From Ramlibacter sp. (GTDB lineage Bacteria > Pseudomonadota > Gammaproteobacteria > Burkholderiales > Burkholderiaceae_C), in NCBI RefSeq assembly GCF_028291745.1, contig NZ_JAQGNQ010000066.1, forward strand, positions 1 to 64,000: a DNA stretch of 64,000 nucleotides, given 5' to 3'. The notes under the pieces are model-generated. The model searched no databases, was not told the DNA's origin, and was given only the letters and a program-made list of their open reading frames with translations. Positions 4,385 through 20,324 of this stretch are shown here, piece after piece (the first letter of the stretch is position 1; every line of letters begins with the position of its first letter). A program made the translations under genes and the position numbers.

Positions 4385-6226
4385 CTAGTGTTTGGCTGTG
4401 GGTTTGATGCTGCCAGGGACGATTCTCGCCCCAAACTCGCGCTGCATCCGCTGCACGAAGGGATCGTTGTGGATGATCTCTTCGGCCGCCTGCTGGCGCT
4501 CGTGGGCGGCGACGGCCAGGCGGCGCGCCGGGCTGTCGCTGATGGGGCCGACCTCCACCGAGAGATCGACCGGGTGGCCGGCGGCCTGCAGCGCCGTCTT
4601 CAGGCGCTCGCGGCTCACCGGCTGGTTGAGTGATTCGCGCTCCACGCGCAGCATCCAGTGGCCCTCGTCGCGCGCGACCAGTTGCGCCTGCAGCGCGAGT
4701 TCGCGCACGAGCGCCGTGACCGCCTCGCGCTCGACGAGCTGCTGCACGGTCTGCTGCCAGAAGTCGCCATCGGGCGTGGGGACCACGCTGGGCACGCCGG
4801 TTGCCGTCTCGCGCAGCGGCTCGGGTTGCACGCGCACGGGGACGCCCATGACGTCGCCGGCGGGGCGCTCGGGGGCGGCGGTGCGCGGCGGCGTTTGGCG
4901 CGGTTCGATGACGGGCAGGACGTGGCCGGGAGGGGCGGCGGGGCGTTGGGGTGCAGCGGGGATGGTGGAGTCGCTGCGCGATTCCACCCTGCGTTCGGGG
5001 GCAGATTGCCCGGTGACGGGCGCGGTGGGGTCGCTGCGCGATCCCACCCTACTCTCGGGAACGGGTTGTCGCGTAGGGTGGGATGGCGCAGCCACCCCAC
5101 CGGGATCATTCAGAGTTTTTTTTTCCCCTGAAGGCTTGAACGCCAGCAGCCGCAGCAGCACCATCGTCAGCCCCGCGTATTCGTCGGGGGCGAGGCCCAG
5201 CTCCGCGCGGCCATGCAGGCAGATGCTGTAAAGCAGCTGCGTCTCGTCCGCCGGCATCATGGCGGCCAGGCGGGCGATCGCCGCCGCTTCCTCGTCGCTG
5301 CCAGCGTCCGCCTGCGGCACGGCCTGCAGCACCGCCATGCGCTGCAGCACCATGCTCATTTCCTCGAGCGCGGCGCCGGCGGACAGGCCATGCAGGCGCA
5401 GCGCCTCGGAGGTGTCGATCACCGTCTTGCCGTCGCCCTGCGCCAGCGCCTGGATCAGGCGGAACACGTGGCTGCGGTCGACGCTTCCGAGCATCGTCCG
5501 CACCGCCGCTTCCTGCAGCTGGCCACCGCCAAAGGCAATGGCCTGGTCGGTCAGCGACAGCGCGTCGCGCATCGAGCCGCGGGCGGCGCGCGAGAGCAGT
5601 CGCAGGGCCTGCGCATCGGCGGGCACGGCCTCGGCCTCGAGCACGGATGCAAGGTGTTCCTGCACCGTCTCCGGCGCCATCGGCCGCAGGTTGAACTGCA
5701 GGCAGCGTGACAGCACCGTGACCGGCACCTTCTGCGGATCGGTCGTGGCCAGCACGAACTTCAGGTACTCGGGCGGCTCTTCCAGCGTCTTCAACATCGC
5801 GTTGAACGCATGCCCCGTGAGCATGTGCACCTCGTCGATCATGAAGACCTTGAAGCGCCCTTGCACCGGCTTGTAGACGGCCTGTTCCAGCAGCGACTGC
5901 ACTTCGTCGACGCCGCGGTTGGAGGCCGCATCGAGCTCGGTGTAATCGACGAAGCGGCCGGAATCGATGTCGGTACACGCCTGGCACACGCCGCAGGGCG
6001 CGGCGGTGATGCCGCCCTGCCCGTCCGGCCCCTGGCAGTTGAGCGACTTGGCGAGGATGCGCGAGACGGTGGTCTTGCCGACGCCGCGGGTGCCCGTGAA
6101 GAGGTAAGCATGGTGCAGCCTTTGCTGCTGCAAGGCGTTCGTCAGTGCCTGCACCACGTGCTCCTGGCCCACCATCTGGGTGAAGGTCCGGGGCCGGTAT
6201 TTCCGGGCGAGCACGAGATACGACAT
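4385..6226 (-). CDS. dnaX: DNA polymerase III subunits tau/gamma
   Basis: Clamp-loader ATPase, 613 aa in the zero frame. Walker A GTRGVGKT is at 45-52, zinc-binding cysteines at 64, 78, 81 and 84, Walker B DEVH at 131-134 and the SRC sensor at 173-175. The ATPase core and collar end near residue 365; a Pro/Arg/Ser-rich linker follows, then the tau-specific C-terminal domain. At codons 368-371 an A9 run (minus strand, 5124-5116) could slip; both shifted frames stop within five codons, giving a protein of about 371-373 aa. The linker contains three copies of a palindromic repeat. A -10-like TAGAAT lies only 6 nt before the ATG, and no ribosome binding site is visible. Confidence 0.97.
4964..5101. 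repeat. dnaX: Three REP-like palindromes inside dnaX coding sequence
   Basis: Copies are at 4964-4993, 5024-5052 and, inverted, 5073-5101. The last two share the arms ggtgggg and atcccaccctac and form a head-to-head pair with a 20-nt spacer, like a bacterial interspersed mosaic element. They differ at two positions that change together (C..G to G..C), preserving the hairpin. All three are read in frame in the DnaX linker. Related copies close nnr at 63242-63320. Confidence 0.75.
5116..5124 (-). promoter_or_regulatory. dnaX: A9 slippage site in dnaX (putative tau/gamma switch)
   Basis: On the coding strand GGGG is followed by nine A residues, read in frame as GAA AAA AAA ACT. Gain of one A, or a -1 shift, reads K-N-S-E then TGA (stop at 5108-5106). 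Loss of one A reads L then TGA. The run sits right after the conserved ATPase/collar region, where gamma-type DnaX ends in other bacteria. The location and stops are seen in the sequence; the function is inferred. Confidence 0.65.
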
Positions 6227-20290: not shown

Positions 20291-20324
20291 GACGGGGCCG
20301 GCCGGCCCCGTTTTCTTTTTTTTT
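20291..20324 (+). terminator. Intrinsic terminator of trxA
   Basis: GACGGGGCCGGCCGGCCCCG forms a strong hairpin followed by TTTTCTTTTTTTTT. It lies 18 bp after the trxA stop and 130 bp before rho. Confidence 0.9.

What the first reader, a model, noticed from the sequence alone, without database searches (positions are those of the whole stretch)
5103..5127. Programmed-slippage signature in dnaX: A9 run with stops in both shifted frames
Seen directly: nine A residues on the coding strand at codons 368-371, just after the conserved ATPase/collar part. Gain of an A (or a -1 shift) leads to K-N-S-E-stop, loss of an A to L-stop. Family knowledge: E. coli makes gamma by -1 frameshifting, and Thermus thermophilus dnaX uses an A9 run and transcriptional slippage. 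Here a gamma-like protein of about 371-373 aa would result. No E. coli-type A AAA AAG motif is present, so polymerase slippage is the simpler idea.
Basis: partly seen in the sequence, partly recalled or inferred. Interest (0 to 1): 0.75.

Follow-up and report, generated by a model that had tools for sequence, protein, structure and literature searches.

The report
Slippery A9 site in dnaX
A run of nine A's in the gene for the DNA-polymerase clamp loader looks like a deliberate slip site that lets one gene make a long and a short protein, and it is kept across a bacterial family although the DNA around it changes freely.

Summary
In detail: dnaX (4385-6226, minus) carries A9 at 5116-5124; one extra A gives KKNSE-stop, one lost A gives KKL-stop. 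On a tree not selected for the run, 111 of 113 informative members of one clade (Comamonadaceae and relatives) keep a run of 8 or more; the slip lysines are AAA in 109 of 109 and 108 of 109 rows, other conserved lysines in 2-46%. In 114 genes with a run, both shifted frames stop within 12 codons in 111; synonymous redraws predict 18.8. The conserved +1-frame TGA has no use in a minus-1 ribosomal shift but fits two-way RNA-polymerase slippage. The two clade members without the run, with seven congeners, carry the E. coli-type signal instead (A_AAA_AAG, a Shine-Dalgarno-like stretch, fixed minus-1 stop), and their +1 stop wanders. Best reading: Thermus-type transcriptional slippage makes gamma (371-373 aa) beside tau (613 aa), and two lineages exchanged it for ribosomal frameshifting. 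Known mechanism, new site; no print report in my searches. No expression data; a ribosomal share on A_AAA_AAA is not excluded.

The parts
4385..6226 (-). dnaX, full-length tau, 613 aa
   Evidence: ORF; TIGR02397 402 bits, cut-off 250; Pfam domains
5116..5124 (-). A9 slip run
   Evidence: conserved in the clade
5117..5123 (-). A_AAA_AAA heptamer in the phase of a minus-1 ribosomal slip (rival mechanism)
   Evidence: read
5110..5112 (-). TGA stop reached when one A is lost (A8 or +1 frame): gamma of 371 aa
   Evidence: the same three bases are conserved across relatives
5106..5108 (-). TGA stop reached when one A is gained or after a minus-1 shift: gamma of 373 aa
   Evidence: a minus-1 stop within 12 codons in 112 of 114 relatives
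5141..5515 (-). domain III (PF12169, residues 238-362), kept in gamma
4409..4765 (-). tau domain V, alpha-binding (PF12170, residues 488-606), lost in gamma
5023..5102 (-). inverted pair of REP-like palindromes in the linker, 13 nt 3' of A9; lineage-specific, not a general part of the signal

Best explanation
The A9 run is a programmed slip site. RNA polymerase realigns on it during transcription and makes dnaX mRNAs with 8, 9, 10 or more A's. A9 (and A12) mRNAs are translated to tau. The other lengths put ribosomes into a shifted frame and onto a stop within a few codons, giving gamma (371-373 aa here): the ATPase and collar parts without the linker and the alpha-binding domain V. Shown here: the run, both stops, and selection on them at nucleotide level across a clade. 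Inferred: that slippage occurs, that the polymerase rather than the ribosome is the main actor, and that gamma is made and used.
For: Clade defined by a tree, not by the run: 111 of 113 informative rows have a run of 8 or more. The two slip lysines are AAA in 109 of 109 and 108 of 109 rows; the nine other conserved lysine columns use AAA in 2-46%; of 227 nearly invariant columns 7 have one codon in at least 97% of rows, and only these two end in A. In 114 genes chosen for a run of at least 7: nine or more A's in 113 (exactly nine in 112) and stops within 12 codons in both frames in 111, against 5.7 and 18.8 when synonymous codons are redrawn; other positions of the same linkers give 6.6%. The base completing the +1-frame TGA is A in 92 of 97 although the residue it starts is N, K, T, I or S, and information falls off right after that stop. 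SD-like motifs: 5 of 114, control 4.3%. Internal contrast: in genera g222 and g166, 9 of 9 genomes have A_AAA_AAG with GGGAG, AGGAG or GGGGGG about 15 nt upstream and a fixed minus-1 stop, but a +1 stop at index 4 or less in only 1 of 9, against 105 of 115 A-run rows. The window's genome encodes both tRNA-Lys(CUU) and tRNA-Lys(UUU), as PMC5009743 section 21 says of Thermus.
Against: No RNA or protein evidence. A_AAA_AAA lies in phase. Downstream RNA is slightly more structured than control (mean z -0.63 against -0.08; upstream -0.34), and very strongly in the window itself. The tRNA argument is not general: g222 has both lysine tRNAs yet carries A_AAA_AAG, and one A9 genome (G371) showed only tRNA-Lys(UUU). 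In families f7 and f49 the +1 stop is more variable, which fits a ribosomal shift as well. Rows share ancestry, so counts are not independent events.
Confidence: 0.8

Rival explanations
1. Gamma is made mainly by a minus-1 ribosomal shift on A_AAA_AAA, as in E. coli but on the all-A heptamer, helped by downstream structure.
For: The run is in the phase that gives A_AAA_AAA in 114 of 115 run-bearing rows; minus-1 stop within 12 codons in 112 of 114; weak downstream structure tendency; strong stem in the window; minus-1 stop next to the run in f7 and f49, though the search pattern demanded it.
Against: Does not explain the conserved +1 TGA or why the run is 9 rather than 7. Ser after KK is written AGC or AGT in 11 of 11, never TCN. 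No conserved SD. The window's stem starts 13 nt after A9. Where relatives do have a ribosomal-type signal, the +1 stop is not kept. [quoted passage not shown] coli, yet AAG follows the run in 1 of 114.
Confidence: 0.14
2. The conserved thing is the peptide E/Q-K-K-T/S-L, kept for a protein reason such as a binding or cleavage site (Caulobacter makes gamma by proteolysis).
For: The peptide is conserved while the rest of the linker is not.
Against: The two AAA codons are near-invariant unlike other lysine columns, in rows not chosen for the run; synonymous redraw; stops in two unused frames have no protein meaning.
Confidence: 0.02
3. The run is a DNA contingency locus: replication slippage switches tau on and off in the population.
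For: Two deposited assemblies carry A7 (L069) or A10 (L092) with a broken frame.
Against: tau is expected to be essential (recalled); run length is 9 in 112 of 115 rows; L069 shows a second frame change further on, so assembly error is likely.
Confidence: 0.02
4. Ribosomes slide on the lysine A-run without a programmed signal.
For: PMC4363877 reports sliding in several frames on poly(A) (passages).
Against: The same paper reports robust truncated product at A11 but little at A9 or A10.
Confidence: 0.02

Closest known systems
Thermus thermophilus dnaX transcriptional slippage (Larsen 2000, not held; described in PMC1088944 and PMC5009743)
   Same: A9 in one tau ORF, stops near in both shifted frames; both lysine tRNAs in the window's genome
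   Different: Unrelated phylum; slippage not measured here; [quoted passage not shown]
E. coli dnaX minus-1 ribosomal frameshift
   Same: Same two products; short tail after the slip
   Different: E. coli has A_AAA_AAG and an upstream AGGGAG (read); here an all-A run, no conserved SD, +1 stop conserved. Genera g222 and g166 of the same clade do look like E. coli
Two-ORF dnaX with A7 to A10 runs (Antonov 2013, PMC3711429)
   Same: Poly-A slip in dnaX, slippage proposed
   Different: There recoding makes tau; here tau is zero-frame and slippage makes gamma
Caulobacter gamma by proteolysis (PMC5009743)
   Same: Short DnaX beside tau
   Different: No slip site involved

Membership tests
Thermus-type dnaX transcriptional slippage | A run of 9 A's inside a single tau frame | tested here: met
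   clade
Thermus-type dnaX transcriptional slippage | Nearby stops in both shifted frames | tested here: met
   window; 111 of 114 within 12 codons, expectation 18.8
Thermus-type dnaX transcriptional slippage | Separate tRNAs for AAA and AAG (an associated, not strictly defining, feature) | tested here: met
   window's genome: L320 ctt and L335 ttt; not general, G371 has A9 and only ttt was found
Thermus-type dnaX transcriptional slippage | Heterogeneous mRNA with A8, A10 or longer runs | not testable with these tools
   no RNA data held
Thermus-type dnaX transcriptional slippage | Short gamma protein in cells | not testable with these tools
   no proteomic data held
E. coli-type dnaX minus-1 ribosomal frameshift | A_AAA_AAG heptamer | tested here: not met
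   window has A_AAA_AAA then ACT; AAG follows in 1 of 114. Met in g222 and g166
E. coli-type dnaX minus-1 ribosomal frameshift | Shine-Dalgarno-like stimulator about 10 nt upstream | tested here: not met
   5 of 114 against 4.3% control. The window has AGGGG directly at the run; E. coli has GGGAG 10 nt upstream
E. coli-type dnaX minus-1 ribosomal frameshift | Stimulatory stem-loop a few nt downstream | tested here: inconclusive
   weak mean tendency; strong in the window but 13 nt away and made of a dispersed repeat

The most novel reading that the evidence does not exclude
Inside one bacterial clade dnaX has exchanged the machine that makes gamma at least twice: from RNA-polymerase slippage (A9 with stops in both frames) to minus-1 ribosomal frameshifting (Shine-Dalgarno-like stretch, A_AAA_AAG, one fixed stop). 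The short product is what selection keeps; the level of decoding is interchangeable. In one of the two lineages (g166) only tRNA-Lys(UUU) was found, as expected if the tRNA set permits the exchange; in the other (g222) both lysine tRNAs remain, so that link is open.
Probability: 0.55. Interest if true: 0.76.

Novelty: new member of a known kind. Interest (0 to 1): 0.66.

Why it matters
How far gamma exists outside E. coli and its kin is unsettled; a 2012 review says most bacteria lack a dnaX frameshift signature (PMC3290774, passages). A clade-wide site held by selection on two unused frames, and its replacement by the other mechanism in two genera, argue that these Betaproteobacteria need gamma, and give an easily tested pair of models for polymerase and ribosome slippage. 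PMC1088944 called slippage that yields truncated products difficult to assess by comparison (passage); the two-frame stop test with synonymous redraws is a way round that.

Tried and rejected
Terminator or antisense role of T9: the plus-strand palindrome is separated from T9 by 13 nt and is lineage-specific. Conserved downstream hairpin as a general stimulator: only a weak tendency. A first GC-only correction gave a larger effect up- and downstream; dinucleotide shuffles reduced it. Peptide-only conservation: rejected. (3 of 158 invariant-residue columns with an invariant codon) used rows chosen for the run and is biased; one search repeats it on the tree clade. A rule that the lysine-tRNA set decides the mechanism: fits g166, not g222 or G371. 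The pattern undercounts (176 of 397 genomes, 63 of 126 genera): it misses the window's own genome because it demands a G or C at a set offset; 15 of 66 readable loci from handles without a match carry a run of 8-10 A's. Rows dropped before the 114 count: L197 (other family, other phase), L045 and L121 (contig ends), L069 and L092 (frame broken); still counted L197 (115 rows). 11 rows could not be parsed for the tree and 2 more. Paper searches: 9 ran; neither their listings nor the passages of the five papers opened show a report of this site.

Full report
WHAT IS THERE. dnaX is 4385-6226 minus and matches TIGR02397. A9 is at 5116-5124. The slip codons are GAA AAA AAA ACT (368-371). Gain of an A gives ..EKKNSE stop, loss gives ..EKKL stop (read; tails also computed). 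Pfam places domain III at 238-362 and the alpha-binding tau domain V at 488-606, so a slip removes the linker and domain V.

MORE THAN CHANCE. A9 is expected 0.04 times per shuffled window. The genome holds 7 distinct A or T runs of 9 or more. The other six, read with 1 kb flanks, look non-coding by eye, several beside GC hairpins. This was judged from ORFs, not from annotation.

CONSERVATION. The search for related loci kept the best 80 of 585 candidates, named among others Ramlibacter, Acidovorax, Rhodoferax, Variovorax, Comamonas, Delftia, Polaromonas, Extensimonas, Caenimonas, Xenophilus and Xylophilus. 77 of 80 carry A9; L069 has A7 and L092 A10, both with a broken frame, and L115 ends before the site. 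30 of 30 same-genus loci fetched carry A9; some are the same contigs as in the first set. After removing duplicates, and with further f1 loci, 114 genes with a run of at least 7 A's were analysed (this choice favours the run; the stops are not favoured by it). The run is exactly nine in 112, ten in one and eight in one (minus L197). The residues before and after vary in kind and number, while the run and the following CT-CTG-A are far better kept.

NUCLEOTIDE-LEVEL SELECTION. Redrawing synonymous codons from each gene's own usage while keeping its protein predicts nine or more A's in 5.7 of 114 (113 seen), a minus-1 stop within 12 codons in 29.5 (112 seen), a +1 stop in 75.9 (113 seen) and both in 18.8 (111 seen). 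At other positions of the same linkers both stops occur within 12 codons in 6.6%. As a control free of the run-based choice, the 114 rows of the tree clade were taken and 112 aligned. In the two slip-site lysine columns AAA stands in 109 of 109 and 108 of 109 rows (L115, L223 and L235 are not aligned there). The nine other columns with at least 90% lysine use AAA in 2-46%. Of 227 nearly invariant columns other than M and W, 7 have one codon in at least 97% of rows; five of these end in C or G, and two are the slip lysines.

WHICH MACHINE SLIPS. The +1-frame stop is as well kept as the minus-1 stop. At the codon after CTG, CTA or TTG the first base is A in 92 of 97 (linker background 12%) while the residue is N 33, K 24, T 17, I 12 or S 6; this A completes TGA (or TAA) in the +1 frame, and conservation drops at the next base. 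A minus-1 ribosomal shift has no use for it. Codons before the run are GAA or CAA in all 114 and the codon after begins with A in 113, giving nine A's where a ribosomal heptamer needs seven. SD-like 5-mers occur in 5 of 114 against 4.3% in control, while E. coli dnaX shows AGGGAG upstream of its A_AAA_AAG. Downstream structure has mean z -0.63 against -0.08 in 456 control windows (p 6e-6, not corrected for kinship; 11% against 5% below -2); this is the main evidence for a ribosomal share. PMC4363877 (passages) reports robust ribosome sliding at A11 and little at A9 or A10.

THE CONTRAST. The two clade members without a run, L213 (genus g222) and L235 (g166), carry A_AAA_AAG in phase; of 48 unique loci without a run they are the only two with an in-phase A_AAA_AAA or A_AAA_AAG. 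All nine genomes of these genera that were sampled (5 and 4) show it. Seven have GGGAG or AGGAG and two have GGGGGG, about 15 nt upstream (my count; E. coli: 10 nt). The minus-1 stop is fixed (index 3 in g222, 1 in g166); the +1 stop lies at index 8, 5, 10, 40, 24, 41, 10, 4 and 19. In the A-run genes the +1 stop lies at index 4 or less in 105 of 115. So the +1 stop is kept with A9 and not with the ribosomal heptamer, as expected if different machines slip. L217, a neighbour of L235 on the tree, has GAA AAA AAA AAG, which holds both signals. Downstream stretches in these nine were folded but not tested against shuffles.

LYSINE tRNAs. The window's genome has anticodons ctt and ttt, the situation that PMC5009743 section 21 (read whole) gives for Thermus as a possible reason for polymerase slippage. 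A search of 12 genomes with the ctt gene, 27 of 30 loci scanned by ARAGORN, gives: g166 ttt only in 3 of 3; g222 both in 3 of 3; A-run genomes G378, G377 and G437 both, G371 ttt only; no-run G304 and G407 both. The tRNA set therefore does not decide the signal by itself.

HISTORY. On a FastTree of 145 DnaX N-termini one clade of 114 rows in the window's family (local support 96) contains 111 with a run of 8 or more; the others are L115 (no data), L213 and L235, which sit apart, so two exchanges are the simplest reading (direction by parsimony, not tested). The 12 remaining family rows on the tree lack a run; at least 6 changes are needed over the tree. In an order-wide sample 89 linkers were read: 9 of 10 in family f1 and 6 of 79 elsewhere have a run of 9 or more in the dnaX tail. 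In family f49, 7 of 8 genomes hold C-A9-CTRA and 7 of 7 loci are in dnaX at about codon 374-388. In f7, 55 of 116 genomes hold [GC]-A9-CTRA, with scattered hits of the reversed control too; of 30 loci read, 20 lie in ORFs recognised as dnaX, usually 465 or more codons in (a minimum, since loci are cut at 1.5 kb), in L291 about 60 residues before domain V. The minus-1 stop there is part of the search pattern and proves nothing by itself. The tool does not name f7, f49, g166 or g222. Whether these sites share one origin is open.

COMPARISON. The anatomy matches the Thermus thermophilus site as described in PMC1088944 (passages) and PMC5009743 (section 21). The primary paper was not held. The window fails two features of the E. 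coli signal, the A_AAA_AAG heptamer and a Shine-Dalgarno at distance. PMC3711429 (passages) describes two-ORF dnaX genes with poly-A where recoding would make tau, and a ribosomal logo from nine genera including Neisseria and none of Comamonadaceae. In E. coli reporters of another gene it measured 40% frame change on nine A's, a guide to possible efficiency.

VERDICT. Programmed slip site: very likely. Polymerase slippage as main route: likely, 0.80. Gamma's function here: untested.

Noticed in passing
L213, L391-L394 (genus g222); L235, L395-L397 (genus g166): E. coli-type signal (A_AAA_AAG, SD-like stretch, fixed minus-1 stop) in place of A9, in 9 of 9 genomes.
   Followed up: yes
window 5023-5102: Inverted pair of REP-like palindromes inserted in the dnaX linker; 22 near-copies (up to 3 mismatches, these included) in the genome, 0 for the reversed control. 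As RNA 5015-5115 folds at -63 kcal/mol, z -7.6. Similar palindromes by regular expression in 8 of 118 loci.
   Followed up: partly
L065, L093 about 60-110 nt after the run: A different palindrome (CTGAGCTTGTCGAA / TTCGACAAGCTCAG) lies downstream of the slip site.
   Followed up: no
window 20316-20324: T9 behind a GGGGCCGGCCGGCCCC hairpin, upstream of a long ORF that looks like rho (name recalled); looks like an intrinsic terminator.
   Followed up: partly
L069, L092: Deposited Ramlibacter montanisoli and an uncultured bin carry A7 and A10 with a broken dnaX frame; assembly error or real polymorphism.
   Followed up: no
codon after the slip lysines, 114 relatives: ACT in 85 of 114 against 5.8% of threonine codons elsewhere, and ACC in 1 against 50%. 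Not needed for the stops; unexplained. ACC would put proline at or near the end of the short product.
   Followed up: partly
L217: A10 in frame as GAA AAA AAA AAG, which contains A_AAA_AAG in phase: a possible intermediate of the two signal types.
   Followed up: no
L139, L152, L153, L181: Other Burkholderiales dnaX tails with runs of 8-10 A's in varied phase.
   Followed up: no
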